The translations under genes were made by a program, and so were the position numbers. Under the pieces are notes generated by a model. The model ran no database searches and was not told where the DNA came from. It worked only from the letters and a program-made list of their open reading frames with translations. 47,878 nucleotides of DNA, taken from positions 1 through 47,878 of the forward strand of contig JAGFNJ010000041.1 in assembly GCA_017592775.1 (NCBI GenBank), read 5' to 3'. The DNA comes from Candidatus Accumulibacter conexus (lineage in GTDB: Bacteria > Pseudomonadota > Gammaproteobacteria > Burkholderiales > Rhodocyclaceae). Of this stretch, positions 11,508 through 30,726 are shown piece after piece (the first letter of the stretch is position 1; each line of letters starts with the position of its first letter).

Positions 11508-11547
11508 GACGCCTGCGGGACATTTTCGTGACGGCCGACTGGCGGGC

Positions 11548-12412: not shown

Positions 12413-12430
12413 CGGTCATTGGCTTGTCAA
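12413..12430 (+). promoter_or_regulatory. Pho-box-like direct repeat with -10 element, driving the aminotransferase
   Basis: The 18-mer contains GTCA at 12415 and again at 12426, exactly 11 bp apart (GTCATTGGCTTGTCA). It matches the enterobacterial consensus CTGTCATAAAWCTGTCAT at 12 of 18 positions. Exactly 10 bp downstream is TACACA (12441-12446), a usable -10, which is the spacing seen in PhoB-activated promoters. The ATG of the aminotransferase is at 12473. PhoB binding is inferred. Confidence 0.6.
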
Positions 12431-12472
12431 AGTGGCTTGGTACACAGGCGGCATCGTCAACAGGCCGCTCCC

Positions 12473-14122
12473 ATGGAACAACAAACCATTGCTCTCATCA
12501 CCCTCGGCGCTGCACTGAGTCTGGCGCTGCCATGGCTGCGGCGTCGGCTGCAGCTTTCGCGCGCCAAGCACCGCTCGCTGGCTGGCCACTCCCGCCTGGC
12601 CAGGCGCGTGGCCAGCCTGCTGCCGGGCTATGCCTACGGCGAGGCGCGCTTCTTCGCTGCCGACGACGCACCGCGCGAGCTGCAGGCCCAGCGCCGTGCC
12701 GGCTTCGAGCGTCTGTGCGCTGAATTCGCCGCACGCTTCGGCCGCGGCGCCGAGATGAGCGCGATGGCGCGCCAGCATATGCCCGATCTGCAGTTCACCA
12801 GCCGCTATCGCGTACCCTTCCAGTTCAGCCCCTATCTGTGCGAACGGTTGCGCATGAGCAGTTTCCTGCAGCGTTCGCACGGCCTCGAAGTCGAGGACGT
12901 GGATGGCAATACGCTGATCGACCTGACCGGTTCCTACGGTGTCAATCTGCTCGGCCATGAGGTCTACAAGCAGTGCATTGCGGAAGGCGCCGCGCTGGTG
13001 CGTGACCTCGGGCCTGTACTGGGGGCCTACCACCCGTGCGTGCTGGAGAACGTACAGCGCCTCGTGCGCATCGCCGGGCAGGATCAGGTCTCGTTTCACA
13101 TGTCCGGCACCGAGGCGGTGATGCAGGCGGTGCGCCTGGCGCGTCATCACACGCGGCGTTCGCACTTGGTGCGCTTCTGTGGTGCCTATCACGGCTGGTG
13201 GGAAGACGTGCAGCCCGGCCCCGGCAACCCGCTGCCACCGCGCCACACTTACACACTGCAGGACATGAGCCCGCGGGCACTGAAGGTGCTGCGAACCCGA
13301 CGTGACATTGCCTGCGTGCTCATCAATCCCCTGCAGGGTCTGCATCCCAATGCAGCGGCTCCAGGCGATGCGTCGCTGATCGACAGCAGTCGCTGCGCCG
13401 CCTTTGACCGCGAGGCTTACACACGCTGGCTGCACGAGCTGCGCCAAGTGTGCAGCGAGCGCGGCATCGTGCTGATCTTCGACGAGATCTTTCTCGGCTT
13501 CCGGCTCGCGCCCGGAGGCGCGCAGGAATATTTCGGGGTTCGGGCCGACATGGTCACTTACGGCAAGACGCTCGGCGGCGGCCTGCCGGTCGGCGTCGTT
13601 TGCGGCCGCAGCGATCTGATGCAGCGCTACCGCGAAGACCGGCCGGCCGACATCTGTTTTGCCCGTGGCACCTTCAACAGCCACCCTTATGTGATGGGCG
13701 CCATGAAGGCCTTCCTGGACCGGATGGAAACGCCCGCGGTGCGCCGTCTCTACGACGGCCTGGACGACCGCTGGAACGGTCGGGCAGCCCGGATCAACGA
13801 GCAGCTGGCGCAAGCCGGGGTGCCGGTGCGCGTGGCGAATCTCTCGACCATCTGGACCGTGCTGTATGCGCAGCCCTCGCGCTACAACTGGATGCTGCAG
13901 TTCTATCTGCGTCGCGAAGGCCTGCTGCTCAGTTGGGTGGGCAGCGGACGCCTGATCTTCAGCCTGAACTTCAACGACGCGGCCTTCGAGGATGTGGCTC
14001 GGCGCTTCGTTGCCGCGGCTCGCACGATGCAGGCTGACGGCTGGTGGTGGCAGGACGCCACGCAGAGCAACCGCTCCATAAAAAGCGGAATCCTGCGTGA
14101 GACGCTCGCTCGGCTGTGGTGA
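12473..14122 (+). CDS. Class III PLP aminotransferase with N-terminal membrane anchor
   Basis: A 549-residue fold-type I PLP enzyme related to glutamate-1-semialdehyde aminomutase and to aminotransferase domains of polyketide synthases. It begins with a hydrophobic anchor (TIALITLGAALSLALPWL, about residues 4-21) followed by a basic stretch. Recognisable motifs are SFHMSGTEAVMQAVRLAR (cofactor phosphate-binding region), FCGAYHGWWEDV, LIFDEIFLGFR (the Asp contacting the PLP ring nitrogen) and TYGKTLGGGLPVG with the Schiff-base Lys. Soluble relatives lack the anchor, so the substrate may be a membrane lipid or acyl chain. Placement between psd and an Mpo1-like gene, behind a Pho-box-like promoter, supports a lipid role. 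The longer upstream frame is antisense to psd and rejected. Confidence 0.85.
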   Translation: MEQQTIALITLGAALSLALPWLRRRLQLSRAKHRSLAGHSRLARRVASLLPGYAYGEARFFAADDAPRELQAQRRAGFERLCAEFAARFGRGAEMSAMARQHMPDLQFTSRYRVPFQFSPYLCERLRMSSFLQRSHGLEVEDVDGNTLIDLTGSYGVNLLGHEVYKQCIAEGAALVRDLGPVLGAYHPCVLENVQRLVRIAGQDQVSFHMSGTEAVMQAVRLARHHTRRSHLVRFCGAYHGWWEDVQPGPGNPLPPRHTYTLQDMSPRALKVLRTRRDIACVLINPLQGLHPNAAAPGDASLIDSSRCAAFDREAYTRWLHELRQVCSERGIVLIFDEIFLGFRLAPGGAQEYFGVRADMVTYGKTLGGGLPVGVVCGRSDLMQRYREDRPADICFARGTFNSHPYVMGAMKAFLDRMETPAVRRLYDGLDDRWNGRAARINEQLAQAGVPVRVANLSTIWTVLYAQPSRYNWMLQFYLRREGLLLSWVGSGRLIFSLNFNDAAFEDVARRFVAAARTMQADGWWWQDATQSNRSIKSGILRETLARLW

Positions 14123-14126
14123 GGCT

Positions 14127-14735
14127 TCAAGCCTGCCGTGCATGTGACATGGGGTCCAGCCGCTCGCCCTTGAGCAGGTGCAGTGGCGCCTTGTAGTAGA
14201 GGCTGATGTCGTGGAAGGGGTCGGTGATGATTTTCACGGCCCAGGCCAGACCGGTCAGCGGGCCATCGCGCAGACAGAGTTGGGCGACGCGCAACAGCAG
14301 GCCGGCAATGCCCAGCGAGAGCCAGGCGATGCCGACATCGTGGACATAGTCCGCGAGACCTTGGGCAGGCTCGATCAGTCCGAACAGCGACGGTTGCAAC
14401 CACAGAAGCAGCGGCAGCAAGGCCCAGGCGCTCAGCAGCACGATCTTGCGTCGCATGTTGTAGCCGACCTTGATCGCTTCCTTGTACTCGTCGCTGACCT
14501 GATTCACCTCGTCGAAGCCACGCGGCTCGAAGAAGAAGTGACCGGTCTGGCGAGTGACCATCGAGACGCCCCAGGCCACCAGGGCTGCCAGCGCGGGATC
14601 CACGAGCAGCAGGCCGTAGGCCACCAGGAAACTGATGGCACTGATCAGATGCAACGTCTGGTTGACGCGGCTCTGGTGGTAGAAGCGATGGTCGTCCCAG
14701 CGCTGAGTCTCGAGCAATATAAGGAAGTTCTTCAC
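14127..14735 (-). CDS. Mpo1-like (DUF962-type) multi-pass membrane protein
   Basis: A 202-residue integral membrane protein with about four hydrophobic segments (TLHLISAISFLVAYGLLLV, ALAALVAWGVSMV, IVLLSAWALLPLLLWL, GIAWLSLGIAGLLLRV). The N-terminal part carries the pattern YHxxxxNxxxHxI (YHQSRVNQTLHLI) and further on TGHFFFEP. These are the His-containing elements of the Mpo1/DUF962 family, whose yeast member is an iron-dependent dioxygenase acting on 2-hydroxy fatty acids. A fatty-acyl or sphingoid-like substrate is therefore plausible. It is convergent with the aminotransferase, with 4 bp between the stops, and is preceded by its own Pho-box-like repeat. The family call is by motif only. 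Confidence 0.6.
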   Translation of the reverse strand: MKNFLILLETQRWDDHRFYHQSRVNQTLHLISAISFLVAYGLLLVDPALAALVAWGVSMVTRQTGHFFFEPRGFDEVNQVSDEYKEAIKVGYNMRRKIVLLSAWALLPLLLWLQPSLFGLIEPAQGLADYVHDVGIAWLSLGIAGLLLRVAQLCLRDGPLTGLAWAVKIITDPFHDISLYYKAPLHLLKGERLDPMSHARQA

Positions 14736-14816
14736 GGGCTACCTCTTTGTCGGTGATGGGTGAAGCGCCGGGCCAGGGAAGGAGGGCGGACGCGGTCCCG
14801 ATGCTGCACGGCTCGG

Positions 14817-14834
14817 GTGACTGCGCCATGACGA
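14817..14834 (-). promoter_or_regulatory. Pho-box-like direct repeat facing the Mpo1-like gene
   Basis: On the minus strand GTCA occurs twice with exactly 11 bp spacing (GTCATGGCGCAGTCA, 14832 down to 14818), about 10 of 18 matches to the Pho-box consensus. A weak -10 candidate CAGCAT (14806-14801) follows after 10 bp. It lies about 80 bp upstream of the Mpo1-like start and is adjacent to an oppositely directed repeat. Confidence 0.5.
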
Positions 14835-14838
14835 TTCG

Positions 14839-14868
14839 ATGTCCGAGCGCTGTCAAGCGACTTGTCAC
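14839..14868 (+). promoter_or_regulatory. Pho-box-like triple repeat upstream of the first GT4 gene
   Basis: GTCC (14841) and GTCA (14852) are 11 bp apart within ATGTCC-GAGCG-CTGTCAA, giving 11 of 18 consensus matches. A third TTGTCAC follows at 14862-14868, 12 bp on. The cluster overlaps the most upstream possible start of the glycosyltransferase, which argues for the ATG at 14902. Confidence 0.5.
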
Positions 14869-14901
14869 GCAATCGTCGCTTGCAAGCAGCAGTATCCGCG
14901 T

Positions 14902-16140
<1,239 letters not shown>

Positions 16141-16206: not shown

Positions 16207-16235
16207 TCGTAACCGCAAGGTCATTCGTTCGTCAC
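16207..16235 (+). promoter_or_regulatory. Pho-box-like triple repeat upstream of the GT4-PlcP pair
   Basis: GTAA (16209), GTCA (16220) and GTCA (16231) recur every 11 bp. The last two form GTCATTCGTTCGTCA, about 10 of 18 matches to the Pho-box consensus. GAGAAT (16246-16251), a 4-of-6 match to a -10, lies 10 bp further on. The predicted start near 16258 would give a leader of about 230 nt before the second GT4 gene, covering a short open frame. Confidence 0.6.
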
Positions 16236-16249
16236 GCAGAGTTTCGAGA

Positions 16250-16489
16250 ATGAAAAGCCCTGAAGACACGATGAAGGACCTCATGGAACAGCAGCTCACT
16301 CCTTGCAGCACGCCGGGCACCGCGCTGTACCGTGCGTGGGGCAACGCGCAGGCACACGACAGGCCGGGCTGCCGCCTGGCTGGTTCCGGCCGCTCGCCGA
16401 TTCATCCCGGTCACCGCGGCCGTCCAGCGTGGTTGCTCCACCCGGCGCCGAAAGTCGGTAGGCGCCGTTGCCGCGGGGGTGCGCGATGA
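16250..16489 (+). CDS. Possible small open reading frame in the GT4-plcP leader
   Basis: An ATG at 16250 opens a 79-codon frame (MKSPEDTMKDLMEQQLTP...) whose TGA overlaps the ATG of the following glycosyltransferase (ATGA at 16486-16489). The four-base overlap suggests translational coupling, but the C-terminal half is Arg/Gly/Pro-rich and looks like random GC-rich translation. The ATG also sits within the proposed -10, so an internal ATG at 16271 would be the more realistic start. Otherwise this is simply a long untranslated leader. No family recognised. Confidence 0.2.
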   Translation: MKSPEDTMKDLMEQQLTPCSTPGTALYRAWGNAQAHDRPGCRLAGSGRSPIHPGHRGRPAWLLHPAPKVGRRRCRGGAR

Positions 16490-17775
16490 CGGGAGTCAAC
16501 TCGACACCGCTCGCGAGCGGCTTGCCAATCGCTCCCGGGCTGCGCGTGCTGATGCTCAGCGACGTCTATTTCCCGCGTGTCAACGGCGTCTCGACGTCGA
16601 TCCAGACGTTTCGAGCCACCTTGGCCAACCTCGGCATTCAGGTCACGCTGGTTGCCCCGGACTACCCCAACAGCGCGAAAGGCAACGACGAACGGTGCGT
16701 CATGCGGGTACCGTCACGAGCGGTGCCGGGCGATCCGGAAGATCGCCTGATGTCCCTGCGTGCGCTCCATCACCTCGATCGAGTCCTCGCTGGCACGAGC
16801 TTCGATCTGGTGCATGTGCAGACGCCTTTTGCTGCGCACTATGCGTCGTTGCGGTTGGCGCGCAAGCGCCACCTGCCGTGCCTGGCCACCTACCACACGC
16901 ATTTCGAGGAGTATCTCGCCCACTATGTCCCGCTGCTGCCGCACTCCTGGCTGCGAACGGCGGCGCGCACCGTGGCGCGCCGGCAGTGTAACGCGCTCGA
17001 TGCTGTGGTCGTGCCGTCGGAGCCGATGCGCGACACGCTGCGCGAGTATGGTGTCCGCGTACCGTTGCAGGTGATTCCCACCGGAGTGCCCGAGTCCCAG
17101 TTCGCTCGCGGTGACGGTATGCGCTTCTGTGTGCGCCACGGCATTTCACCTCGCCGCCGCGTCGTCCTGTTCGTCGGGCGCGCCGCCCATGAGAAGAATA
17201 TCGGCTTCTTGCTGAACATGCTGGCACGCGCGTGCATGGCGGAACCCGAGTTGCTGCTGGTAGTCGCTGCCGATGGACCGGCGCTTCGTGACTTGCGGTC
17301 GCAGGCGACAGCGCTTGGTCTGGAAGCGCATGTGCTGTTTGTCGGCTACCTTGACCGGAATACGGATCTACGCGACTGCTACGCCGCCGCCGAGGTCTTC
17401 GTCTTCGCTTCACAGACCGAGACGCAGGGTCTCGTCCTGCTCGAAGCGCTGGCCAGTGGTCTGCCGGTACTCGCGATCGCGGCCCTCGGCACGCGCTCGA
17501 TCGTTGATCCGGGACGCGGCGCGGTCGCGGCAGCGACGACGCCGGATGCGTTCGCAGAGCAACTGATCGACCTGCTCGGCAACCGGCAGCGGCTTGCCGA
17601 ACTCGCGGCTGCGGGCCCGAGCTTCGCTCGCGAGTGGGCTGCCGATCGGCCGGCGCGGCAGTTGGCCGGTCTGTATCGGAGCTTGATCGCTCACCGGGCG
17701 TCTCTCGGCCCACGGCAGAGAGAGGTGACCCCGAGCGTGGACGCTCGGTCGATCAAGATGGAGGGCACGACATGA
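16486..17775 (+). CDS. GT4 diacylglycerol glycosyltransferase, Agt-like
   Basis: A 429-residue GT-B enzyme. It starts RVLMLSDVYFPRVNGVSTSI and contains LATYHTHFEEYLAHYVPLL, a segment characteristic of 1,2-diacylglycerol 3-glucosyltransferases and of the Agt enzymes encoded beside plcP. The donor domain has VVLFVGRAAHEKNIGFLL and FASQTETQGLVLLEALASGLPV. In marine and soil proteobacteria Agt makes monoglucosyl and glucuronosyl diacylglycerol during phosphate limitation. The start at 16486 has GGGGGTG just upstream and is preferred over a TTG at 16468. It lies 187 bp before the PlcP-type gene on the same strand, behind a Pho-box-like repeat. Confidence 0.85.
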   Translation: MTGVNSTPLASGLPIAPGLRVLMLSDVYFPRVNGVSTSIQTFRATLANLGIQVTLVAPDYPNSAKGNDERCVMRVPSRAVPGDPEDRLMSLRALHHLDRVLAGTSFDLVHVQTPFAAHYASLRLARKRHLPCLATYHTHFEEYLAHYVPLLPHSWLRTAARTVARRQCNALDAVVVPSEPMRDTLREYGVRVPLQVIPTGVPESQFARGDGMRFCVRHGISPRRRVVLFVGRAAHEKNIGFLLNMLARACMAEPELLLVVAADGPALRDLRSQATALGLEAHVLFVGYLDRNTDLRDCYAAAEVFVFASQTETQGLVLLEALASGLPVLAIAALGTRSIVDPGRGAVAAATTPDAFAEQLIDLLGNRQRLAELAAAGPSFAREWAADRPARQLAGLYRSLIAHRASLGPRQREVTPSVDARSIKMEGTT

Positions 17776-17962
17776 CCAGGAACGTGGCCGGCTTCGTGCT
17801 CCGTGGACCGCGAGCCGCCGTCGCCACGCGGATCGCACCACGAAGTGGAAGCCTTGGCGGCGCTGCGACGCCGAGCGCCGGGGGATCATGCGACAGCCGG
17901 GCCGTACGCCCTGCGCGCGCGAGGTCCTCGGACATGCGGGGATTGCCGCAGGGACTGCGCCC

Positions 17963-18790
17963 ATGAAAGTGCGCTCGATCTTCGTCTCGGACGTCCATCT
18001 TGGCACCCGCGGCTGTCAGGCCGAGCGTTTGCTGGAGTTTCTCCGCGAGCACGAGGCGCAGTATCTGTACCTGGTTGGCGACATCGTAGACTTCTGGGCG
18101 ATGCGTCGCGGCATCCACTGGACGCCGGCACAGAATACGGTCGTGCAGAAGATTCTGCGTCGCGCGCGACACGGTGAGCATGTCATGCTGATTCCGGGCA
18201 ACCACGACGAAGCGCTGCGCGAGTACGACGGGGTCTCCTTCGGCCAGATTCTCGTGCGCCAGGAGCACGTCCACGTCACCGCCGACGGCCGTCGCTTCCT
18301 GCTCCTGCACGGCGACGAGTTCGATCAGGTGACACGCCATCACCGCTGGCTGGCGATTCTCGGCGATGTCGGCTACGATGCGCTCGTGCGCGCCAACGCG
18401 CTGCTCGCGCGCTTGCGCCGACTCCTGCGGCGGCCAGGCTACTGGTCGCTGGCCGGCTATGCGAAGAGCCGTGTCAAGCGTGCCGTTTCCTTCATCTTCT
18501 GCTTCGAGGACTCGGTGATCCACGCCGTCAGGGCGCGCGGTCTCGATGGCGTGATCTGCGGCCATATCCACAGCGCGACGATCCAGGCCAGGGACGGGCT
18601 GACCTATGCCAACTGCGGCGACTGGGTCGATAGTTGCACCGCCATCGTCGAACACCTCGACGGCCGTCTCGAACTGATCCGCGCCTGGCAGCCGGTGCCG
18701 CTGACGGTCCCTGGCGCAGCGGCGCAAACGCGACCACAACCGGAGCCGGTCGCTGTTCCGTCCGCCGCGGCGCAGCGCGAGGCGCTGTAA
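17963..18790 (+). CDS. plcP: PlcP-type phospholipase C (LpxH-family metallophosphoesterase)
   Basis: A calcineurin-like metallophosphoesterase of 275 residues. The metal-binding blocks appear in order: SDVHLG, VGDIVDFW, IPGNHDE, LHGDEFD and GHIHSA. The family is usually annotated UDP-2,3-diacylglucosamine diphosphatase. The segments FVSDVHLGTRGCQAERLLEF and NCGDWVDSCTAIVEH match my recollection of Sinorhizobium PlcP, which cleaves phosphatidylcholine to diacylglycerol under phosphate limitation, better than LpxH. Being next to an Agt-like gene supports PlcP. A basic helix (RVKRAVSF) could bind membranes. The ATG at 17963 follows AGGGA; the longer upstream frame is unsupported. Housekeeping LpxH remains the main alternative. 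Confidence 0.75.
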   Translation: MKVRSIFVSDVHLGTRGCQAERLLEFLREHEAQYLYLVGDIVDFWAMRRGIHWTPAQNTVVQKILRRARHGEHVMLIPGNHDEALREYDGVSFGQILVRQEHVHVTADGRRFLLLHGDEFDQVTRHHRWLAILGDVGYDALVRANALLARLRRLLRRPGYWSLAGYAKSRVKRAVSFIFCFEDSVIHAVRARGLDGVICGHIHSATIQARDGLTYANCGDWVDSCTAIVEHLDGRLELIRAWQPVPLTVPGAAAQTRPQPEPVAVPSAAAQREAL

Positions 18791-18884: not shown

Positions 18885-20750
18885 TCAAGCGTCCTTGAGT
18901 TGGGCAACCGCGAGCTTGCGCAGCGTCGGCTGTTGCTTGGCGAAGTGCTCGTCCATGCGCCCGATGATCCCGTTCAGGAAGCGGACGGTTTCGACGATGT
19001 TCGGACCCTTGTTGAGCATGGCGCACTCGGCGAGGATGCTCATCGCGGCATCCGAGACCTCGGCACGCGATGGCGAGCCCTTCTTGGCCATGCCTTCGAG
19101 GATCTGCGTGGCCCAGATGACCGGTACGTGTGCCGCTTCGCACAACCAGAGGATCTCCTGCTGGACTTCCGACAGCCGCTCGAAACCGACCTCAACCGCC
19201 AGATCGCCGCGTGCGATCATGACGCCGACCGGAGGCGAATGCAGGCTCGCCAGGAGGATGTGCGGCAGATTTTCGAAGGCCTGGCGGTTCTCGATCTTGA
19301 GCACGATGCCAAGGTGGCTCGCTCCGAGCCGATAGAGTTCGTCATGCAGGCACTCGACGTCCGCAGGCCCGCGTACGAAGGAGAGGGCGACCATGTCTGC
19401 CAGCTTGACGACTTCGGGCAGATCATTGCGGTCCTTGTCGGTCAGCGCCGACATCCTGAGCGCCGTGTCAGGGAAGTTGATTCCCTTCTCGGCGCGCAGC
19501 TTGGCGCCCTGAGGCCCCGTATGGGTGATCCTGACCGTGATCCGTTCACCGTCCGCCTGGCTTACGATGCCGCCGATCTTGCCATCGTCGAACCAGACAC
19601 TCTGTCCTGGCTCAGCCTGCTCGAATGCCGCGTCGAGCGTACAGTGGATGTGCGCCGGGCTGATCACGCCGCCGTCTGCGTCACGCTCGGCGTCGGCTCC
19701 CGGCTCGTCGGCGCGGGTCAGAACCAAGTGGTCGCCTGCCAGCAGCTCGATCGGACTGACGACCGCGGGCACGTCGACGACGCGGCCGGCGCCGACCGGC
19801 TCGCCGGCACGTGTCGCGCTGACGGCAGTCCCCTCCTCGACGTAGGCTGTCCGCTCGATCTCGGACAGCCAGCACGTGCCGACCGCCTCGCGGACGTGCA
19901 ACTGGTGGTCCTGATCTCGTGCGTCGGTAAAGCAGATCAGATCGCCTGGCGCGAGTTGCGCCAGGCAGTTTCCGTCGATCCTGAGCGTGAAGCGAATGCC
20001 CCGGGGGGGCGGCACGACCGCATCCGCCGGCGTCAACCACACTTTTCCAGCGACCGCGAGGCGACCGAAAACGTCCCGCTTGGGAGCGAGCCGGATCACT
20101 CTGCCGCTGGCACGGATCGACCCGGTGCGCAGCTTGGGTCCGGCCAGATCCGCCTGGATGCGGCAGCTTCGCCCGACCGCCTGTTCGGCGCGACGCAGGT
20201 TCTCGACCATGGCGGCCCAGACTCCGGGACCATCATGGGCGCAATTGATGCGCATCACGTCCATTCCGGCGAGCAGCAGATCATGCACCAGCCGCGAATC
20301 CGATGCCGCCTCGCTGGGCATGGTGACCATGATGCGCACGGGGCGGTCGGCGGGCTCCGGCCCGAGCAGCGCTCGCGTGTGATCCCGCAACAGCAGCGGA
20401 CCGGTATGGAAATCGACCGGGGGTTCGGGCGCGGGACCAAAGCCCCTGCCGGTGAGCTGCTCCAGGATCGCCATCACCGAGTTGAGGCTCGACATGGCGT
20501 GCGGCTGGAGTATGCCGAGAGACGACAGGCCCAAGGAACCGAGATCCTGCTGCAGGCTGCGGATGTCGTGCTGGCGGATGCTGAGGTAATGGAGGAAGTT
20601 GCGGGCGCTAGCGCGATGGCTCGGTTCGATTTGCCCCAGTTCCGCTGCGTACGCCTGCTCAAGCTTGCTGGCGCCGTCGCGCAGGGTGCCGAGTTGAGCC
20701 ACCAGTCGCTCCAACTGGCGAGGCGTGAGCTGCGTGCTTTTCGTGGTCAT
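18885..20750 (-). CDS. Divergent pyruvate kinase-like protein with N-terminal extension
   Basis: A 621-residue protein whose C-terminal 480 residues carry the pyruvate kinase barrel: RIMVTMPSEAA in place of the usual TLGP opening, MRINCAHD for the NFSHG region, QADLAGPKLRTG, a lid-like B domain, DLPEVVKLADMVALSFVRG, LKIENRQAFENL, MIARGDLAVEVG and ATQILEGMAKKGSPSRAEVSD. The Glu and Asp that bind the metal (KIEN, RGD) are retained. It stops after the barrel, without the C-terminal allosteric domain, and has about 130 extra helical N-terminal residues. The ATG at 20750 follows GGGACCC. It is the last gene of the minus-strand pst run. Activity on phosphoenolpyruvate is likely but not certain. Confidence 0.8.
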   Translation of the reverse strand: MTTKSTQLTPRQLERLVAQLGTLRDGASKLEQAYAAELGQIEPSHRASARNFLHYLSIRQHDIRSLQQDLGSLGLSSLGILQPHAMSSLNSVMAILEQLTGRGFGPAPEPPVDFHTGPLLLRDHTRALLGPEPADRPVRIMVTMPSEAASDSRLVHDLLLAGMDVMRINCAHDGPGVWAAMVENLRRAEQAVGRSCRIQADLAGPKLRTGSIRASGRVIRLAPKRDVFGRLAVAGKVWLTPADAVVPPPRGIRFTLRIDGNCLAQLAPGDLICFTDARDQDHQLHVREAVGTCWLSEIERTAYVEEGTAVSATRAGEPVGAGRVVDVPAVVSPIELLAGDHLVLTRADEPGADAERDADGGVISPAHIHCTLDAAFEQAEPGQSVWFDDGKIGGIVSQADGERITVRITHTGPQGAKLRAEKGINFPDTALRMSALTDKDRNDLPEVVKLADMVALSFVRGPADVECLHDELYRLGASHLGIVLKIENRQAFENLPHILLASLHSPPVGVMIARGDLAVEVGFERLSEVQQEILWLCEAAHVPVIWATQILEGMAKKGSPSRAEVSDAAMSILAECAMLNKGPNIVETVRFLNGIIGRMDEHFAKQQPTLRKLAVAQLKDA

Positions 20751-23112: not shown

Positions 23113-24168
23113 TCAATTGACCCTGCCGAGTGCCGCTTGGCTGCGGACGATCAAATCGCCAGGCAAACGGATGAAGCCCATTTCGCTGCTCATGTTCTGG
23201 CCTTCCTGCAGCCCCCAGTTGACGAAGCGTTTCAGCGCCTGTGCCTTGGCCTGATCCGTGTAGCGCTCCTTGAGCAGCAGCCAGGTCAACGAGACGATCG
23301 GGTAGGCCTCGGCGCCGTCCGGGTCCGGGATGAAAACACGCAGGTTGGCGGGAATGCGCGCGAGGTTGGCCGCGAGCGTCGCCTCGCCAACGCCATCAGC
23401 GGGTGCGACATAGCGGCCTTCCTTGTTTTCCAGGTGGGCGACCGGCAAGCCGAGGTGTTTGGCGAAGCCGAATTCGACGTACCCGATCGAGCCGGCAGTC
23501 ATCTTGACGCGCGCGGCAACCCCCTCGTTGCCACGCACCAGCATCGTGCCGGCAGCCCAACCCACGGTCTTGCCGGTACCTGGACCGCGGTCGCGCCATT
23601 GTGTGCTTGCAGCGCTGAGGTGATTGGTCAGAGCGTAGGTCGTGCCGCTGCTGTCCAGCCGTGCCACCAGCACGATCTCGCGGTCGGGCAGGTTGAGCCC
23701 GGGGTTCGTCGCCTGGATGCGCGCGTCGTTCCAGCGGGGGATCCGGCCCATCAGCAGCGCTGCATAGGTATCGCGCCGAAGCTGCAACGGCCCATTCAGT
23801 CCGGGCAGGTTATAGACGAGAGCGATCAGGCCAGCGGTCACAGGTACCAGCACGGCACCCTGCGGAGCCGCAGCGATCTGCTCGTCACTCAGGGCGGCAT
23901 CGCTGGCGGCAAAATCAACCGAGTCGGCCAGAAAGCGTTTGACGCCTTCGCCGCTACCGACCGCCTTGTAGTCCAGCACGACCGCCGGGTTGACATTGCG
24001 GTAGGCGGCGATCCACTTCCGGTAGAGCGGTGCAGGGAAGGTGGCGCCGGCACCGTTGAGGACGATGCCCGCCTCGCTCGATGCGGGCGTTTGCGCCTGC
24101 ACGCCGGGTAGCAGCAGGGTCAGGCCGGCGAAGATCGCGCCGACAGCGGCAATTCGCAGTTTTTTCAT
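23113..24168 (-). CDS. pstS: Phosphate ABC transporter substrate-binding protein PstS (second copy)
   Basis: A periplasmic phosphate-binding protein of 351 residues. The Sec signal peptide (MKKLRIAAVGAIFAGLTLLL, cleavage after VQA) precedes the PstS motifs GAGATFPAPLYRKWI, YKAVGSGEGVKRF, DFAASDAALS, RLDSSGTTYALTNHL and GSIGYVEFGFAKH. A GGAGG lies about 12 bases upstream of the ATG. It follows pstB by 21 bp in the same operon that begins with another pstS. The two PstS proteins are clearly different in sequence, so they may differ in affinity or ligand (phosphate versus analogues). Confidence 0.93.
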   Translation of the reverse strand: MKKLRIAAVGAIFAGLTLLLPGVQAQTPASSEAGIVLNGAGATFPAPLYRKWIAAYRNVNPAVVLDYKAVGSGEGVKRFLADSVDFAASDAALSDEQIAAAPQGAVLVPVTAGLIALVYNLPGLNGPLQLRRDTYAALLMGRIPRWNDARIQATNPGLNLPDREIVLVARLDSSGTTYALTNHLSAASTQWRDRGPGTGKTVGWAAGTMLVRGNEGVAARVKMTAGSIGYVEFGFAKHLGLPVAHLENKEGRYVAPADGVGEATLAANLARIPANLRVFIPDPDGAEAYPIVSLTWLLLKERYTDQAKAQALKRFVNWGLQEGQNMSSEMGFIRLPGDLIVRSQAALGRVN

Positions 24169-24189
24169 ACGGGGTCGTCGCCTCCTCGA

Positions 24190-25002
24190 TCAGCTGAACT
24201 GGCCGCTGATGTAGTCGCGCGTCAGCTTCTCGCGCGGGTTGCCGAAGATCTGCTCGGTTGGCCCCAGTTCGACGAGATAGCCGGTGCGTGTGCCGGCGGA
24301 GATGTCGACCGAGAAGAAAGCCGTGGTATCGGCCACGCGCGTTGCCTGCTGCATGTTGTGCGTGACCAGGGCGATGGTGTACTTCCTTTTCAGCTCGACC
24401 ATCAGTTCCTCGACCCGGCGGGTGGCAATGGGATCGAGTGCCGAGCACGGTTCGTCCATCAGCAGGACCGCGGGCTCGGTGGCTATGGCGCGCGCGATGC
24501 ACAGGCGCTGCTGCTGGCCACCAGAGAGTGCCAGGCCGCTGACCTTCAACTTGTCCTTGACTTCGTCCCACAAGGCGGCACCCTGCAGCGCGTCCTTGAC
24601 GCGGTCACCGATATCGCCCTTGTAGCGATTGAGGCGCAGACCGAAGGCGACGTTGTCGAAAATGCTCATGGAGAACGGGTTGGGTTGCTGGAAGACCATG
24701 CCGATGTAGCGCCGGACGACCACCGGATCGACTCCCTTGCCATAGACGTCCTGGCCCAGAAAATGCACATGGCCCTCGAAACGGAAGCCGTCGACCAGAT
24801 CGTTCATGCGGTTCAGGCTACGCAGCACCGTGCTCTTGCCGCAACCGGAAGGTCCGATGAAGCCGGTGATCCTGTTCTTCTCGATCGGCACGTGGCTGTC
24901 GCGAACAGCCATGAAGTTGCCGTAGAAGATCTTGTCGAGTTTGCAGTCCATCACCGCTGCGGTCGCTGCGGTGCCTGCGGCGGGTTGTGTGTTGGCGTTC
25001 AT
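24190..25002 (-). CDS. pstB: Phosphate ABC transporter ATP-binding protein PstB
   Basis: The ATPase of the high-affinity Pst phosphate importer (270 residues). Motifs: Walker [11 protein letters not shown]-loop VFQQPNPF, signature LSGGQQQR, Walker B VLLMDEP and H-loop VTHNMQQA. The N-terminal [16 protein letters not shown] is a normal PstB beginning after a short Ala-rich leader. The ATG at 25002 follows AAGGAACC. In many bacteria PstB also takes part in PhoR signalling through PhoU, but no phoU is present in this window. The gene is flanked by pstA and the second pstS. Confidence 0.97.
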
Positions 25003-25021
25003 GGTTCCTTGCCTAGGTAGG

Positions 25022-25915
25022 TCAAAACCGCGGGCGGCCGATGATGCGGCTGACGATGTTGATGACCAGCACGATCATCACCAGTACCAGCGACGCGGCC
25101 CAAGCCAGCTCGATCTGGTTGTCGAAGGGCATGCCGGAGAAGTTGTAGATCAGGACGGCCAGCGATGCTGTCGGCCCCATCAGTTCGAGCGAGCCATCCT
25201 GGAACAGCCAATAGTTGCTGAACAACGCAGTGAACAGCAGGGGGGCGGTCTCACCGGCGGCGCGTGCCACGGCGAGCATGACGCCGGTGAGGACGGCTGG
25301 CATGCCGGTCGGCAGGACGATCTTCCAGATTACCTGGGTCCTCGTGCACCCCATGCCGTAGGCCGCATCCTTCATCGCCTTGGGCACCATCTTCAGGGCT
25401 TCCTCGGCGGTCAGCACGACGATCGGCAGCATCAGCACGGCCAGCGCCACACCGCCGGCAGGCGCCGAATAGCTGCCGGTGGTCAGGACGACCAGGGCGT
25501 AGGCAAAGACGCCGGCGAGAATCGAGGGCAGCCCGGTGAGGGTCTTGGCGGCGAAACGGGCCACGGTGGCCAACTTGCTGCCCGGACCCAATACGGAGAG
25601 AAAGATCCCCGCGAGAATGCCGACGGGAATCGCGATCAGCGCGGCAATGCCGACCATCACGAAGGTCCCGACCAGCGCATTGCCGAAGCCACCGCCCAGC
25701 TCGAAGCCAGCGGGCGGCAACTCGCTGAGCACTTCCCAGTTGAGGCGGCTCCCGCCGCGCATGATCAACATGTAAAGCACGGAGAACAGCGGTACGCTGG
25801 CGATCACGGCGCACGCCCAGGCCAGTCCGCTGAGCAAGGCGCTGCGCAGCGAGCGTCCTGCCAGCTTGCGCTGCAGGCTGGGTGCCGGCTGGCCCGAAAC
25901 GGACAGGTTCCGCAT
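25022..25915 (-). CDS. pstA: Phosphate ABC transporter permease PstA
   Basis: An inner-membrane permease of 297 residues with about six transmembrane helices, the first being [19 protein letters not shown]. The typical PstA segments are [35 protein letters not shown] and, around the EAA loop, [20 protein letters not shown]. The ATG at 25915 overlaps the pstC stop (TGATG); a GTG three bases earlier is also possible. It forms the channel with PstC. Confidence 0.95.
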
Positions 25916-26880
25916 CACTTGGCTCCCCGCTGGGACATCATCATGATCGACGAACCGACGAGGTTGACCACCAGCGTGATCAGCATCAGCACCAGGGAGG
26001 CGTACATCAGCACCTCGACCTCGGCCGGCCCTGCTTCAGGGAAGTTCAGTGCCAGCAGTGCCGCCAGCGTGTTGGCCGGAGAAAACAGTGACAGACTGAT
26101 CTGGTTGGAGTTGCCGACCAGCATGGCGAGCGCCATCGTTTCGCCGAGGGCGCGACCAAGACCGAGGACCAGGGCGCCGAAGATGCCGGTAGCAGCCGTT
26201 GGCAACATGACCTTGAGAATGGCTTCCCAATGGGTGGCACCCATGCCGTAGGCAGCCTGCTTGGTCTTCAGTGGTACTGCGCGCAGCGCGTCCTGCGATA
26301 CCGCGGCGATCGTCGGCAGGATCATGATGGCGAGAACGAGTGCTGCAGGCAGAAGACCCGGGCCACTCAGGCTCGACTTGAAAAAGGGCAGCCAGCCAAG
26401 CGTTTGATGCAACCAGTCGGCCAACGGGCGAATCGCCGGAATGACGACGAAGATTCCCCAGAGCCCATAGACAACGCTGGGAATGGCGGCCAGCAGTTCG
26501 ATGATGGTGCGAAACAGCGCGGCCAGGCGTGGCGGCAGGAAGTCCTGGGTGAGGAAGATGGCCATCATGACGCCGAAAAAGCCGCCAATCAGCAAGGCCA
26601 GCAGAGAACTGTACAGCGTGCCCCAGATGGCTGGCAGGATGCCGTATTGCAGCTGGTTGGGATCCCATACCGTGCCGGCGATGAAGCCCGTGCCGTATTT
26701 CTGCATTCCAGGCACGGCCTTGCCGCCGATCTCCACGACCAGGGCAACAACCAGCAGCAGGATCAGGAAGACGCCGAAGTAGCACAGTCCGCGAAAGCCG
26801 CGATCAACCACCAACTGCGTCGCCGTGGGCGGCTGGCAAACGGAATCGTTCAGCGGCAGAACAGCAAAGGGCTTGTTCAT
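25915..26880 (-). CDS. pstC: Phosphate ABC transporter permease PstC
   Basis: An inner-membrane permease of 321 residues that pairs with PstA. Recognisable parts are the first membrane helix GLCYFGVFLILLLVVALVVE, WDPNQLQYGILPAIWGTLYS, AAIPSVVYGLWGIFVVIP, and the EAA-type loop DALRAVPLKTKQAAYGMGAT. A strong GGAGGATCTC precedes the ATG at 26880. About 108 bp separate it from the upstream pstS. I see no obvious terminator there, so the operon probably continues. Confidence 0.96.
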   Translation of the reverse strand: MNKPFAVLPLNDSVCQPPTATQLVVDRGFRGLCYFGVFLILLLVVALVVEIGGKAVPGMQKYGTGFIAGTVWDPNQLQYGILPAIWGTLYSSLLALLIGGFFGVMMAIFLTQDFLPPRLAALFRTIIELLAAIPSVVYGLWGIFVVIPAIRPLADWLHQTLGWLPFFKSSLSGPGLLPAALVLAIMILPTIAAVSQDALRAVPLKTKQAAYGMGATHWEAILKVMLPTAATGIFGALVLGLGRALGETMALAMLVGNSNQISLSLFSPANTLAALLALNFPEAGPAEVEVLMYASLVLMLITLVVNLVGSSIMMMSQRGAK

Positions 26881-26988
26881 GAGATCCTCCAGTTGGATTG
26901 TCGATCGCGGGTCGGTGGTGCGTTCGGGCTTGCCGGTGCAGGCGGTGGGCTGGGGGAGCGAGACACCGCGTCACGGCAACCTGCGCGC

Positions 26989-28008
26989 CTATTTGATGCT
27001 GGCCGCCGCCGTGCGCACCTGATCGACCACCGTGGTCGGCAGCGGAATGTAGCCCATCGCGTCGGCCATCTTCTGGCCTTGCGTCAGACCGTACTCGACC
27101 ATCTCGCGCATCGCCTGCGCCTTCTTCGGATCGGCGTTGTTCTTGCGGAAGATCATCCAGGTGTAGGAGGTGATCGGGTAGGCCTTGGCGCCATCCGGGT
27201 CAGGCAGCCAGGCAATCATGTCCTGTGGCAGCTTGAAGCCGGCGAGCGTCTCCCCGCCGCTGCCAGCCGCAACGTATTGACCCGCCTTGTTCTGAAGCAG
27301 CGCGTACTCGACCTTGGCCAGCTTGGCAAAAGCGTATTCGATGTAGCCGATGGCGCCCGGAGTCTGGCGCACGGTCGCCGTCACGCCGTCGTTCTTCGGC
27401 GACTTGATGAACTTGTCGCTGGCCGGCCAGTTGACCGTGTTGCCTTCGCCAAGCGTCTTCCTGAACGCATCGTTGATGGCTGCCAGATGCTTGCTGAAGA
27501 CGGCCGTGGTACCGGACGAATCAGCACGGACGACGACCGTGATCGGCAGATCGGGGAGGCTCACGGCCGGATTGGCGGCGGTGATCCTGGCGTCGTTCCA
27601 GCGGGTGATCTTGCCCAGGAAGATGTTGGAATAGACCTCACGCGGCAGCCGGACGCCCTTGGGATTGCCCGGCAGGTTGTAAGCCAGGACGATCTCGCCG
27701 GCCGTCATCGGCAGCAACTGCACGCCTTCGGGCACCTTCGCCATATCCTCTTTGCTCATCGCGGAGTCGCTGGCAGCGAAGTCAACGGTCCTGTTCAGGA
27801 AATCCTGGACCCCCGCACCGCTGCCCTTGGACTGGTAATCCACCGTCAGATTCGGGTTCTTCTTGCCCAGATCCTTGAACCAGGCGAGATAGAGCGGTGC
27901 CGGAAAGCTGGCGCCGGAGCCGATCAGACGAATCCTCTCCTGTGCGAGGGCAGAGGAAGAAAGAGTGAGCGCGGCAGCGCAGGTCACAGCGAACATGATC
28001 CGTTTCAT
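26989..28008 (-). CDS. pstS: Phosphate ABC transporter substrate-binding protein PstS (first copy)
   Basis: A periplasmic phosphate-binding protein of 339 residues, first of the pst genes in transcription order. The signal peptide is MKRIMFAVTCAAALTLSSSA, cleaved after ALA. Motifs are GSGASFPAPLYLAWFKDLGK, DYQSKGSGAGVQDF, DFAASDSAMSKEDM, RADSSGTTAVFSKHL and GAIGYIEYAFAKL. CCGGAG lies about 9 bases upstream of the ATG. I found no GTCA repeat with 11-bp spacing directly in front of it, so expression may come from the promoter near 30.7 kb and pass through the EAL and HAD genes. Confidence 0.96.
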   Translation of the reverse strand: MKRIMFAVTCAAALTLSSSALAQERIRLIGSGASFPAPLYLAWFKDLGKKNPNLTVDYQSKGSGAGVQDFLNRTVDFAASDSAMSKEDMAKVPEGVQLLPMTAGEIVLAYNLPGNPKGVRLPREVYSNIFLGKITRWNDARITAANPAVSLPDLPITVVVRADSSGTTAVFSKHLAAINDAFRKTLGEGNTVNWPASDKFIKSPKNDGVTATVRQTPGAIGYIEYAFAKLAKVEYALLQNKAGQYVAAGSGGETLAGFKLPQDMIAWLPDPDGAKAYPITSYTWMIFRKNNADPKKAQAMREMVEYGLTQGQKMADAMGYIPLPTTVVDQVRTAAASIK

Positions 28009-28066
28009 CAGTCAGACTCCGGAGGTGGTCACAAAGCCATGAGTGTGATGGCGCGTTGTTGCGGGA

Positions 28067-28681: not shown

Positions 28682-28686
28682 GAAGT

Positions 28687-30636
28687 TCAGGTCTTGGTCC
28701 TTTCCCGCGTTGTTCCCCCTGATCGTTCTTCGGGCGGGACTCTGGGGTTCGAGGAGGCATCCCGGCGGTACCCTTCGCTCGGCGGTCCTGCGGCGGCGGG
28801 CTTGCGGCAGGGCGTCAGAAGGCCAGCAGCGGACCAGGAGTCGTCCGCTTGGCCAGACCGGCGCCGCTCAACGAATACGCAGCCGCTTGGCGCCTCTCCC
28901 GGCACCCTCCTGGCCGCCTTCTTCGCCTCCTTTTTGGCTACCGCTACAGCCGCTGCAACTTCGCGATGCGAATCGCATTGTCCGGGATGGACGCGCACGG
29001 CACCCACGGAGAGCGTCGGCCAGGCCTGGAAGACCAACTCGCCCTTGCGGTTCTCGGCCATGTAGCCATCGCCACCAAGGCCATTCGCAGCGGCCATCGG
29101 CTGCATCGCCTTGGCGAAGCGATCGACGATGTTCCAACAGCGAGCTTCCCAGTCAGCACTCTGGAAGGCAACAAAGAAATCGTCGCCACCGATGTGCCCG
29201 ACAAAGTCGATACCTTGATTGACCGTCTGGCAGATCAGGCGTCCCAGGAGCTGGATGACGTCGTCGCCACGCCGATAGCCGTAGGTATCGTTGTATGGCT
29301 TGAAATTGTCGACATCGAGATAGGCGACGACGAAGCTCTTGTCCGCTGCCAACATGCGGTCAATGTGCTCGTTGATCGGCACGTTGCCCGGTAGTTGCGT
29401 GAGGGGGTTGGCGTAGCGGGCGGCGCTGATCTGCATTTCGGTGATCATGGCCATCAGGTCGTGGCTGCTGCCCACGCCCAAGTATTTTCCTTCGCCAGTA
29501 ATGATGAAGCCGTCGAACAGGTGATGCTTTGGGGCCAGCGCCAGCATCATCGCCAGTTCCTGCGCGGTGGCCTGCTGATCGACGACGAGTGGCGCGTGGT
29601 CCATGATCTGCGTACAGTTGGCGCGACCGAAAAGCTCCCGCTGGAAGGGGCGGGCGAAACGCTCGAAGAGGGTGTGACGATTGATGAGGCCGACAGGCAC
29701 GTCACCACGCACGACCGGCAGCACGTCGAGTTCGCCATCGGCCTCGAAGCGGGCCATGACGCTCTCGTTGGTCGCATGGGAGGGCGCCGGCGTCACCGGT
29801 CGCAGCAGATTCATGGCAGTCGCCATCCGCGAACCGGCGGGTGAAAGAGCAAGCTGCTTCTGCGCCAGTGCCTCGACGACGATGGGTGACAGATGACGGT
29901 CCGGGGAGGTCGCCGGTCTGGCGACAAAGAACCCCTGCGCACAGGCGATGCCCAAGTCGCGGGCAAAGACAAAATCTTTGCAGCGTTCGATGCCCTCTGC
30001 CACGATCGACGCATGGCAGATCTCGGCGAGATCCTGCATGGCGCGAACGAAGTGGTATTTCATGCGGTCATCGGCGATCCCGTGGATGAAATGCTTGTCT
30101 ATCTTGACGAACTCGGGCCGCACTTCCGACCACATGCGCAGGTTCGCAAAGCCTTCACCAAGATCGTCGATGGCGATCTGGAAGCCGCGCCTGCGAAAGT
30201 GCAACAGCCCTTCATGCATCCCGGGCAGATCGGTGATCTGCTGGTTCTCCGTCAACTCGATGACCACCCGATTCGCGGCGATTCCCAGGTCGTTCAGCAG
30301 ATGACAGGTCGCGCCGTTCATCAGGCGATCGTCGAGCAGGCAGCCTGGCGTGACGTTGAGAAACAGCCTCCCGGGCAAGCCAAGGCGGGCAAAGGCACGC
30401 AGGCTGGCCTCGCGGCAGGCCTGTTCGAGTGCGCCGGCCAGTCCGGCGCTACGCGCCGCGGCAAACAATTGGTCTGGACGATGCAGCGGCGAACTGGCGG
30501 GTCCGCGGATCAGCGCCTCGAATCCCAGGTAGGCCTGTGCCCGGAAATCGAGAATGGGCTGAAAGACCGGGTGCAGCAGACCCTCGCGAATGACGCGCCC
30601 GATGTCCTCGGCTGCGTCCCTGAGCGGCATGACCAT
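28687..30636 (-). CDS. EAL-CBS-CBS-GGDEF cyclic-di-GMP protein
   Basis: A 649-residue soluble signalling protein. The EAL domain (about residues 15-245) keeps the phosphodiesterase residues: FEALIRG, LNVTPG, ELTEN, AIDDLGEG, VKIDKHF and VAEGIE. A paired CBS region follows (about 275-390: ESVMARFEADGELDVLPVVR, CTQIMDHAPLVVDQQATAQE), then a GGDEF domain (DVDNFKPYNDTYGYRRGDD, HIGGDDFFVAF). The signature is GGDDF, a conservative Glu-to-Asp change, so cyclase activity is possible but uncertain. CBS domains may sense adenine nucleotides. I start it at the ATG at 30636 because the longer TTG start at 30702 lies in a Pho-box-like repeat. It heads the minus-strand pst run. Confidence 0.88.
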   Translation of the reverse strand: MVMPLRDAAEDIGRVIREGLLHPVFQPILDFRAQAYLGFEALIRGPASSPLHRPDQLFAAARSAGLAGALEQACREASLRAFARLGLPGRLFLNVTPGCLLDDRLMNGATCHLLNDLGIAANRVVIELTENQQITDLPGMHEGLLHFRRRGFQIAIDDLGEGFANLRMWSEVRPEFVKIDKHFIHGIADDRMKYHFVRAMQDLAEICHASIVAEGIERCKDFVFARDLGIACAQGFFVARPATSPDRHLSPIVVEALAQKQLALSPAGSRMATAMNLLRPVTPAPSHATNESVMARFEADGELDVLPVVRGDVPVGLINRHTLFERFARPFQRELFGRANCTQIMDHAPLVVDQQATAQELAMMLALAPKHHLFDGFIITGEGKYLGVGSSHDLMAMITEMQISAARYANPLTQLPGNVPINEHIDRMLAADKSFVVAYLDVDNFKPYNDTYGYRRGDDVIQLLGRLICQTVNQGIDFVGHIGGDDFFVAFQSADWEARCWNIVDRFAKAMQPMAAANGLGGDGYMAENRKGELVFQAWPTLSVGAVRVHPGQCDSHREVAAAVAVAKKEAKKAARRVPGEAPSGCVFVERRRSGQADDSWSAAGLLTPCRKPAAAGPPSEGYRRDASSNPRVPPEERSGGTTRERTKT

Positions 30637-30684
30637 CTTCGTGCTTGTCCCGCGGAAGTAGTCAGGCCAGTGTAGGTCCGCCAG

Positions 30685-30702
30685 ATGACGAAACGGTGAC
30701 AA
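30685..30702 (-). promoter_or_regulatory. Pho-box-like direct repeat plus -10, facing the EAL-HAD-pst run
   Basis: On the minus strand TTGTCACCGTTTCGTCAT has GTCA twice at exactly 11 bp spacing, 11 of 18 consensus matches. TACACT (30674-30669), a 4-of-6 match to a -10, begins exactly 10 bp downstream. The predicted transcript would start near 30662, upstream of the ATG at 30636. Confidence 0.65.
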
Positions 30703-30708
30703 GCCGTC

Positions 30709-30726
30709 CTGTCATCTTCCTGCAAA
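30709..30726 (+). promoter_or_regulatory. Pho-box-like site facing the OlsB-like gene
   Basis: CTGTCATCTTCCTGCAAA has a perfect first half-site (CTGTCAT) and a degraded second one (CTGCAAA) at 11-bp spacing, about 11 of 18 matches. The -10 candidate CATGCT (30737-30742) is weak. It is divergent from the neighbouring Pho-box-like repeat, and the two cores form an inverted pair. Confidence 0.45.

What the first reader, a model, noticed from the sequence alone, without database searches (positions are those of the whole stretch)
12413..30726. Pho-box-like repeats at four intergenic regions define a likely phosphate-starvation regulon
Direct GTCA repeats with exactly 11-bp spacing occur at 12415/12426 (+), 14832/14821 (-), 16220/16231 (+) and 30700/30689 (-). 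Two further variants lie at 14841/14852 (GTCC/GTCA) and 30711/30722 (second half degraded). All are intergenic and point at the aminotransferase, Mpo1-like gene, both GT4 genes, the EAL-HAD-pst run and the OlsB-like gene. Two sites (12413-12430 and 30685-30702) have a good -10 exactly 10 bp downstream, the classic PhoB geometry. With equal base frequencies an exact GTCA-N7-GTCA is expected once per 65,536 positions per strand, so four within under 1 kb of intergenic DNA is striking. I did not scan every coding base for the motif.
Basis: partly seen in the sequence, partly recalled or inferred. Interest (0 to 1): 0.82.

Follow-up and report, generated by a model that had tools for sequence, protein, structure and literature searches.

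The report
Phosphate-starvation switches for membrane-lipid genes
A stretch of a Candidatus Accumulibacter genome (a phosphate-hoarding wastewater bacterium) carries a set of likely phosphate-starvation control sites in front of genes for phosphate uptake, phosphorus-free membrane lipids, a c-di-GMP enzyme and an extra pyruvate kinase, which suggests that these genes are switched on together when phosphate runs out.

Summary
GTCA-N7-GTCA occurs six times exactly in the window, against about 0.7 expected from the rest of the genome; all six are intergenic. A 36-bp matrix (Pho box plus -10), trained on pstS promoters of 28 other genomes, gives eight window hits above 9.5, seven intergenic. In 296 kb of other own-genome DNA it gives six: three intergenic, at the pst region and phoU-phoB, and three coding. 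The Pho-regulon reading is well supported but needs correcting. The strongest site was missed: 20799-20834 (-), before a PRK14725-type pyruvate kinase; so was one before pstS1. The two GT4 sites are weak, and the exact repeat at 20903 is chance. The island resembles PlcP-Agt/OlsB lipid remodelling. Two parts look new to me. The pyruvate kinase has a Pho box in 11 of 15 related genes and 9 of 27 more distant ones. The aminotransferase is closest to the MycA aminotransferase among solved structures and recurs beside Mpo1-like and Psd genes; its Pho boxes in relatives are individually weak. PhoB binding and induction were not testable.

The parts
20799..20834 (-).
   Evidence: matrix score 29.8; rank 1 with both reduced training sets; box before the same gene in relatives
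30667..30702 (-). Pho box with -10 (TACACT) before the EAL gene and the pst genes behind it
   Evidence: exact GTCA-N7-GTCA; score 22.0; 23.4 in close relative L219
30709..30744 (+). Pho box (second half GCAA) with -10-like CATGCT before the OlsB-like gene
   Evidence: score 19.8; 18.7 in L219
28040..28075 (-).
   Evidence: score 13.9; 12.2 in L219
12413..12448 (+). Pho box with -10-like TACACA before the aminotransferase
   Evidence: exact repeat; score 11.7; 20.3 at the same place in L212 (10.7 with the base composition of L212)
14799..14834 (-). Probable Pho box before the Mpo1-like gene
   Evidence: exact repeat; score 10.0; boxes before mpo1 in L212, L214, L239, L243; -2.7 with out-of-genus training only
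11477..11512 (-). Possible Pho box before the GT28-ugd pair; its -10 abuts the likely start (ATG 11471), so the message would be leaderless
   Evidence: exact repeat; score 9.8; start analysis; -2.9 with out-of-genus training
16218..16253 (+). Weak Pho-box-like site with GAGAAT before GT4b
   Evidence: exact repeat but score 2.5; similar site before gt4b in Ca. A. aalborgensis L002 scores 16.1
14841..14880 (+). GTCC/GTCA/GTCA repeats before GT4a; not a matrix match in this window
   Evidence: sequence; best score there -0.1; GT4a box 17.8 in L212
20903..20917 (+). Exact GTCA-N7-GTCA judged to be chance (points at the back of corA)
   Evidence: rank 4788 and 809 with two matrices
8839..10230 (-). 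UDP-glucose dehydrogenase family (ugd)
   Evidence: Pfam PF03721/PF00984/PF03720
10227..11471 (-). GT28 glycosyltransferase resembling diglucosyl-diacylglycerol synthase
   Evidence: PF04101 23 bits, cut-off 22; NF010135 72 bits, far below its cut-off 500; start
11548..12411 (-). Second phosphatidylserine decarboxylase-like gene (psd paralogue), GST processing motif (recalled) kept
   Evidence: PF02666 185.8 bits; another psd on contig C26; alignment
12473..14122 (+). Class-III aminotransferase (amt), hydrophobic N terminus, presumed PLP lysine in an invariant YGKT
   Evidence: PF00202; MycA best solved-structure relative; A1; hydropathy
14127..14735 (-). Mpo1-like membrane protein
   Evidence: PF06127 21.1 bits, just under the cut-off 24
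14902..16140 (+). GT4 glycosyltransferase a
   Evidence: Pfam
16486..17775 (+). GT4 glycosyltransferase b
   Evidence: Pfam, NCBIfam
17888..18790 (+). PlcP-like metallophosphoesterase (name by context and recall)
   Evidence: PF12850; next to GT4 genes in many Rhodocyclales loci
18885..20750 (-). PRK14725-type pyruvate kinase, third in this genome
   Evidence: NF011314 768 bits, cut-off 642; two full-length canonical ones elsewhere
23113..28008 (-). pstS1-pstC-pstA-pstB-pstS2 transporter genes (phosphate role inferred from order and likeness to other pst genes)
   Evidence: generic Pfam domains; likeness to pst genes of relatives
28687..30636 (-). EAL-CBS-GGDEF c-di-GMP protein
   Evidence: Pfam
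30905..31696 (+). OlsB-like acyltransferase
   Evidence: PF13444; NF052554 131 bits, below cut-off 350

Best explanation
These are PhoB-binding sites (Pho boxes): phosphorylated PhoB sits on two 11-bp repeats in place of a -35 and recruits RNA polymerase to a -10 about 11 bp downstream (recalled mechanism). At low phosphate they would switch on together: a second pst transporter; a PlcP/GT4/GT28/Ugd set that strips phospholipid heads and puts sugars on the diacylglycerol; an OlsB-like ornithine-lipid step; an EAL protein that lowers c-di-GMP; an uncharacterised aminotransferase-Mpo1 pair; and a third pyruvate kinase. Shown here: the sites, their match to independent pst promoters, their intergenic placement, and their recurrence before the same genes in other genomes. 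Inferred: PhoB binding, induction and the lipid products.
For: Matrix from pstS promoters of 28 other genomes: eight window hits above 9.5, seven intergenic; 40 order-2 simulated sequences gave 0.25 hits above 10 on average against 6 observed, and never more than 15.0; Fisher p = 4e-7. In 296 kb of other own-genome DNA the three intergenic hits are pstS 36.9, a small ORF upstream of pstS 30.1 and phoU-phoB 26.8. PhoB is present over its cut-off. Relatives: L212, from another family, has boxes at amt 20.3, mpo1 15.7, gt4a 17.8 and pk 29.3. Pyruvate-kinase boxes in 11 of 15 related genes and 9 of 27 more distant ones. The two canonical pyruvate kinases of this genome have none in 350 bp upstream and its canonical psd none in the whole locus. 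Column-permuted matrices almost never reach 13 (0.06% for 747 control promoters). PMC12604563 reports pst and pho genes rising in Accumulibacter at low phosphate (passages).
Against: No expression or binding data. The amt, Mpo1 and GT28 sites score only 10-12; with out-of-genus training Mpo1 and GT28 fall to about -3, and with same-genus training alone two coding hits stand among the top five. GT4a and GT4b do not pass the matrix in the window. In the other own-genome DNA three of six hits are coding. With ORF-caller starts, 0 of 13 amt promoters in relatives reached 13; with homology-based starts the amt signal is collective only (13 loci, combined p = 1.4e-7, loci partly related), the best single amt site there being 11.6. 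plcP has no box of its own here. 4 of 15 related and 18 of 27 more distant pyruvate-kinase genes lack a box. The bare repeat is not enriched genome-wide.
Confidence: 0.88

Rival explanations
1. The repeats are chance GTCA pairs in a region that happens to hold pst and lipid genes.
For: GTCA-N7-GTCA is no commoner in the genome than its reversed control, 81 against 93. One of the six window copies (20903) is chance by the matrix.
Against: Independently trained matrix, intergenic bias and recurrence in other families.
Confidence: 0.05
2. The sites bind another OmpR-family regulator with direct repeats of similar spacing, so the genes answer to another signal.
For: The genome has many PhoB-like response regulators: 67 matches to the PhoB family, 1 over its cut-off.
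Against: The matrix comes from pstS promoters and recovers phoU-phoB and pstS in this genome; the neighbours are pst genes.
Confidence: 0.06
3. Only the strong sites (pyruvate kinase, EAL-pst, OlsB-like) are real; the aminotransferase, Mpo1, GT28 and GT4b sites are decayed or non-functional.
For: Scores 2.5-11.7 and sensitivity to the training set.
Against: Boxes at some orthologous amt, mpo1, gt4a and gt4b promoters elsewhere; exact repeats in intergenic DNA.
Confidence: 0.3

Closest known systems
PhoB/Pho-box regulon (Escherichia coli pst and phoA type)
   Same: 11-bp direct repeats with GTCA, -10 at fixed distance, pst genes and phoU-phoB under the same motif
   Different: Here it also seems to cover a PRK14725 pyruvate kinase and an aminotransferase-Mpo1 pair that I recall from no described Pho regulon
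PlcP-Agt lipid remodelling (Pseudomonas aeruginosa PA3219/PA3218/PA0842, passages of PMC8528852; marine bacteria, passages of PMC4796936)
   Same: Metallophosphoesterase beside GT4 glycosyltransferases and Pho boxes at the cluster
   Different: Adds GT28 plus Ugd, an OlsB-like gene and pst genes; the characterised proteins were not fetched, so no direct comparison was made
RapA, phosphate-starvation c-di-GMP phosphodiesterase of Pseudomonas fluorescens (passages of PMC3032545)
   Same: c-di-GMP enzyme behind a Pho box
   Different: Sits at the head of a pst gene run; kinship with RapA not tested
Mycosubtilin synthase MycA aminotransferase domain (PDB 6kfm)
   Same: Best solved-structure relative of the amt family, 226 bits against 150 for the next protein
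   Different: Stand-alone protein, hydrophobic N terminus in 6 of 10 sequences as cut by me, next to psd and Mpo1 genes, not a synthase module

Membership tests
PhoB-dependent promoter (Pho box) | two GTCA-like half sites 11 bp apart | tested here: met
PhoB-dependent promoter (Pho box) | -10 at fixed distance, box in place of -35 | tested here: met
   20799, 30667, 30709, 28040 and 12413; weak at 14799, 11477 and 16218
PhoB-dependent promoter (Pho box) | same motif at pst and phoB promoters of this genome | tested here: met
   36.9, 30.1 and 26.8
PhoB-dependent promoter (Pho box) | PhoB encoded in the genome | tested here: met
   300.9 bits, cut-off 296.2
PhoB-dependent promoter (Pho box) | PhoR encoded in the genome | not tested
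   a passage of PMC11131965 says PhoR-B is conserved in all Ca. Accumulibacter genomes
PhoB-dependent promoter (Pho box) | PhoB binding and induction at low phosphate | not testable with these tools
   needs cells or protein
PlcP-Agt lipid remodelling | calcineurin-type phosphoesterase next to a GT4 glycosyltransferase | tested here: met
PlcP-Agt lipid remodelling | sequence kinship with characterised PlcP and Agt | not tested
   no characterised sequence was fetched
PlcP-Agt lipid remodelling | glycolipids replace phospholipids at low phosphate | not testable with these tools
   needs lipidomics
OlsB (ornithine lipid N-acyltransferase) | NCBIfam equivalog cut-off | tested here: not met
   131 of 350 bits needed; called OlsB-like only
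PRK14725 pyruvate kinase | NCBIfam equivalog cut-off | tested here: met
   768.5, cut-off 642
Mpo1-like (PF06127) | Pfam gathering score | tested here: not met
   21.1, cut-off 24
RapA-type phosphodiesterase | EAL protein under a Pho box | tested here: met
   kinship with RapA itself not tested

The most novel reading that the evidence does not exclude
The aminotransferase, the Mpo1-like protein and the second Psd form an undescribed phosphate-starvation lipid pathway: an aminotransferase related to MycA puts an amino group on a 3-oxoacyl or similar lipid intermediate to make a phosphorus-free aminolipid, with the Psd paralogue and Mpo1-like protein acting on the same lipid. The same regulon carries a dedicated starvation pyruvate kinase, a type found in 29 of 369 sampled genomes of the class.
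Probability: 0.3. Interest if true: 0.8.

Novelty: new member of a known kind. Interest (0 to 1): 0.55.

Why it matters
Accumulibacter is the model polyphosphate-storing organism of wastewater treatment (recalled). A regulon that swaps its phospholipids would be a second way of coping with low phosphate besides polyphosphate. In the held library, Accumulibacter with 'Pho regulon' and 'phosphate starvation' gave 0 papers, with 'lipid remodel' 0, and with 'ornithine lipid' 1, by its title on Rhodocyclus genomes; two Accumulibacter papers found hold no word beginning with 'lipid' in the main text. The work also ties two gene families to phosphate starvation across several families: the PRK14725 pyruvate kinase and, more weakly, the MycA-like aminotransferase with its Mpo1/Psd partners. 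That gives a direct handle on what they do.

Tried and rejected
The first motif models were trained on the wrong strand for loci matched on the minus strand, and the very first on too long an upstream stretch as well, so that it locked on to a coding element; both were discarded and redone.

Rejected: the exact repeat at 20903 as a Pho box; O-phosphoethanolamine phospho-lyase as the aminotransferase's role, because no such name appears among the 60 shown of 173 solved-structure relatives, a weak argument since it rests on names and a capped list.

Gene starts for amt in relatives were unreliable with my ORF caller, hence the repeat with homology-based starts.

An error found on checking: the upstream stretch of one pyruvate-kinase locus (L204) was cut by a contig end and scored at the wrong place; one search repeats all 16 + 27 loci with the right positions. 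L204 changes from -2.1 to -8.5; the counts do not change. An earlier count said 13 of 16; the tables give 12 of 16 at 14 or more (own genome included), and 13 of 16 as best hit of their locus.

Dropped rows: L200 (truncated pyruvate kinase, 1 of 17) was left out. L175 was left out of motif training, and L146 (own genome) out of the matrix; L166 stayed in although it shows no clear box. L001 and L216 were left out as near copies. L180/L250 (weak amt, 30%) was not counted as an amt locus. Two training promoters (L160, L169) lie inside loci scored (L024, L010), neither of them a row labelled pstS1. The printed output was cut in the middle (part of L040 to L044 not seen).

Paper searches on the aminotransferase and Mpo1 side and on pyruvate kinase with Pho box listed no paper that by title or abstract start concerns these genes; the papers listed only there were not opened.
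Full report
What was checked. The window lies in a 4.87-Mb genome of 102 contigs. Its closest named PlcP relatives are Candidatus Accumulibacter genomes (95% to L001), so I take it as Ca. Accumulibacter, a polyphosphate-storing betaproteobacterium (recalled). Two further exact copies exist, at 11496-11510 (-) and 20903-20917 (+). With my own gene calls, all 6 of 6 fall in intergenic DNA, which makes up 4,391 of 47,878 bases, against 15 of 75 for the other copies in the genome. The genome as a whole holds 81 copies and 93 of the reversed pattern. The bare repeat therefore means nothing by itself; its local density does (Poisson p = 1.3e-4).

An independent matrix. The pstS gene of contig C54 was sought in 60 other genomes. 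A 36-bp model (box plus -10) was learned from the 190 bp upstream of 28 of the 30 loci returned; the own genome and a cut-off copy were left out. Two earlier training runs were wrong and discarded. The learned motif is a Pho box, roughly TGTCATCAA-CTGTCACA, followed by a -10 at fixed distance; one of the 28 (L166) shows no clear box. On the window it gives eight hits above 9.5, seven intergenic: 20799 (-) 29.8; 30667 (-) 22.0; 30709 (+) 19.8; 28040 (-) 13.9; 12413 (+) 11.7; 14799 (-) 10.0; 11477 (-) 9.8. One hit, 19634 at 9.6, is coding. Forty simulated sequences gave 0.25 hits above 10 on average, against 6 observed, and never more than 15.0. In 296 kb of other own-genome DNA (stretches chosen around exact repeats, plus contig C74) there are six hits: three intergenic (pstS 36.9, a small ORF upstream of pstS 30.1, phoU-phoB 26.8) and three coding at 11.1 to 13.9. 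With training outside the genus only (11 promoters), 20799, 30709 and 30667 remain the top three, the fourth is a coding hit at 9.4, and 14799 and 11477 fall to about -3. With same-genus training only (17 promoters), 14799 and 11477 score 11.1 and 7.4, but two coding hits (11.0, 9.7) stand among the top five. The repeat at 20903 ranks 4788th and 809th, so it is chance.

What the genes are. Reading left to right: ugd and a GT28 resembling diglucosyl-diacylglycerol synthase; a second psd (another lies on contig C26); a class-III aminotransferase; an Mpo1-like protein; two GT4 glycosyltransferases; a PlcP-like phosphoesterase; a PRK14725-type pyruvate kinase (the genome has two canonical ones besides); corA; pstS2-B-A-C-S1; an EAL-CBS-GGDEF protein; and an OlsB-like acyltransferase. 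Several labels are below curated cut-offs (OlsB, Mpo1, and GT28 for its NCBIfam model), and the name PlcP rests on context and recall. Together they look like the PlcP-Agt phospholipid-to-glycolipid switch described in P. aeruginosa (passages of PMC8528852) and marine bacteria (passages of PMC4796936), both of which report Pho boxes. The EAL gene recalls RapA of P. fluorescens (passages of PMC3032545).

Conservation. In 21 of 80 loci brought in by PlcP, mostly Rhodocyclales by their titles, pst genes lie divergent from an olsB-gt4b-gt4a-plcP run, many with Pho boxes (output partly cut). Scored over called promoters in 102 loci (101 gave any), boxes of 13 or more occur at 10 of 10 pstS1, 1 of 1 pstS2, 7 of 10 histidine phosphatase, 4 of 6 pyruvate kinase, 12 of 28 plcP, 8 of 17 EAL, 10 of 26 gt4a, 7 of 22 olsB, 4 of 22 gt4b, 2 of 9 mpo1, 0 of 13 amt, 0 of 5 psd, 0 of 29 pstC, 0 of 5 pstA and 0 of 2 corA, against 60 of 747 other promoters; four families with one row each had none or are named here. 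The amt zero is against my reading. My ORF caller seemed to set some amt starts too far upstream. With homology-based starts the 13 amt promoters carry a collective signal (combined p = 1.4e-7), as do 12 mpo1 (2e-5) and 10 gt4a (2.7e-4), but not 9 psd (0.39). These loci are partly related, so the p-values are optimistic, and in several loci the best amt hit is no convincing box. L212, from another family, has psd/amt/mpo1/gt4a in the same order, with boxes at amt 20.3, mpo1 15.7 and gt4a 17.8, and pk 29.3 on the same contig. Those figures use the window's base composition; with L212's own they are 10.7, 7.9, 9.2 and 19.8.

Pyruvate kinase. This is the strongest site and was not in the finding. 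Of 15 related genes scored (one truncated copy left out; two are from one genome), 11 have a box of 14 or more, and in 12 it is the best hit of the whole locus; the own gene makes it 12 and 13 of 16. Of 27 further genes from as many genomes of the class, 9 reach 13 and in 13 the upstream hit is the best of the locus (which corrects one misplaced locus and repeats). The two canonical pyruvate kinases of this genome have no box in 350 bp upstream (best -7.9), and the canonical psd locus has none anywhere. The alignment to a solved pyruvate kinase covers the barrel in two stretches, with an insert of about 155 residues and no match over the C-terminal domain; the residues I recall as catalytic look kept. 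One library search for pyruvate kinase with Pho box listed six papers, none of which by title or abstract start concerns this; they were not opened.

Aminotransferase block. amt is rare: 4 of 40 relatives besides the own genome at 1e-40, one of them weak (30% identity), and 10 of 368 genomes of the class besides the own at 1e-120. In the stretches around 13 amt loci other than the window, mpo1 is found in 10, psd in 8, GT4 in 8 and a PlcP-like gene in 6; several contigs end early. Two loci have DUF3419 plus methyltransferase genes beside amt; I recall DUF3419 as BtaA, and btaA/btaB beside plcP are described in passages of PMC4796936. A profile of ten amt proteins matches the MycA aminotransferase domain best among solved structures, 226 bits against 150 for the next protein. 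I recall that MycA aminates 3-oxoacyl chains. In 6 of 10 sequences as cut by me the N terminus is hydrophobic (17-residue mean above 1.6); some of the other four may begin at a wrong start. That makes a lipid substrate plausible but does not prove it.

Verdict. Mechanism inferred: PhoB activation at low phosphate; lipid swap, phosphate uptake and c-di-GMP decrease as outputs.

Noticed in passing
window 18885-20834: PRK14725-type pyruvate kinase with a strong Pho box; box recurs before this gene in other genomes.
   Followed up: yes
window 11548-14735: psd / aminotransferase / Mpo1-like block recurs in the same order in several families, often with GT4 and PlcP-like genes in the stretch.
   Followed up: partly
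L081 3722-4279 (own contig C54): Small ORF (121 aa, no Pfam match) upstream of pstS behind three GTCA half sites in 11-bp register.
   Followed up: no
L247, L248: DUF3419 plus methyltransferase genes (betaine-lipid type, recalled) beside an aminotransferase relative that is about 190 residues longer.
   Followed up: no
window 28687-30636: EAL-CBS-GGDEF protein under a Pho box; EAL genes with boxes in 8 of 17 scored promoters of related loci.
   Followed up: partly
window 22290-23054: Fic-like protein, below the Pfam cut-off (22.3 of 24), between corA and pstS2.
   Followed up: no
window 31687-32139: Histidine-phosphatase-family gene behind the OlsB-like gene; related loci often have a Pho box right before it, 7 of 10.
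   Followed up: no
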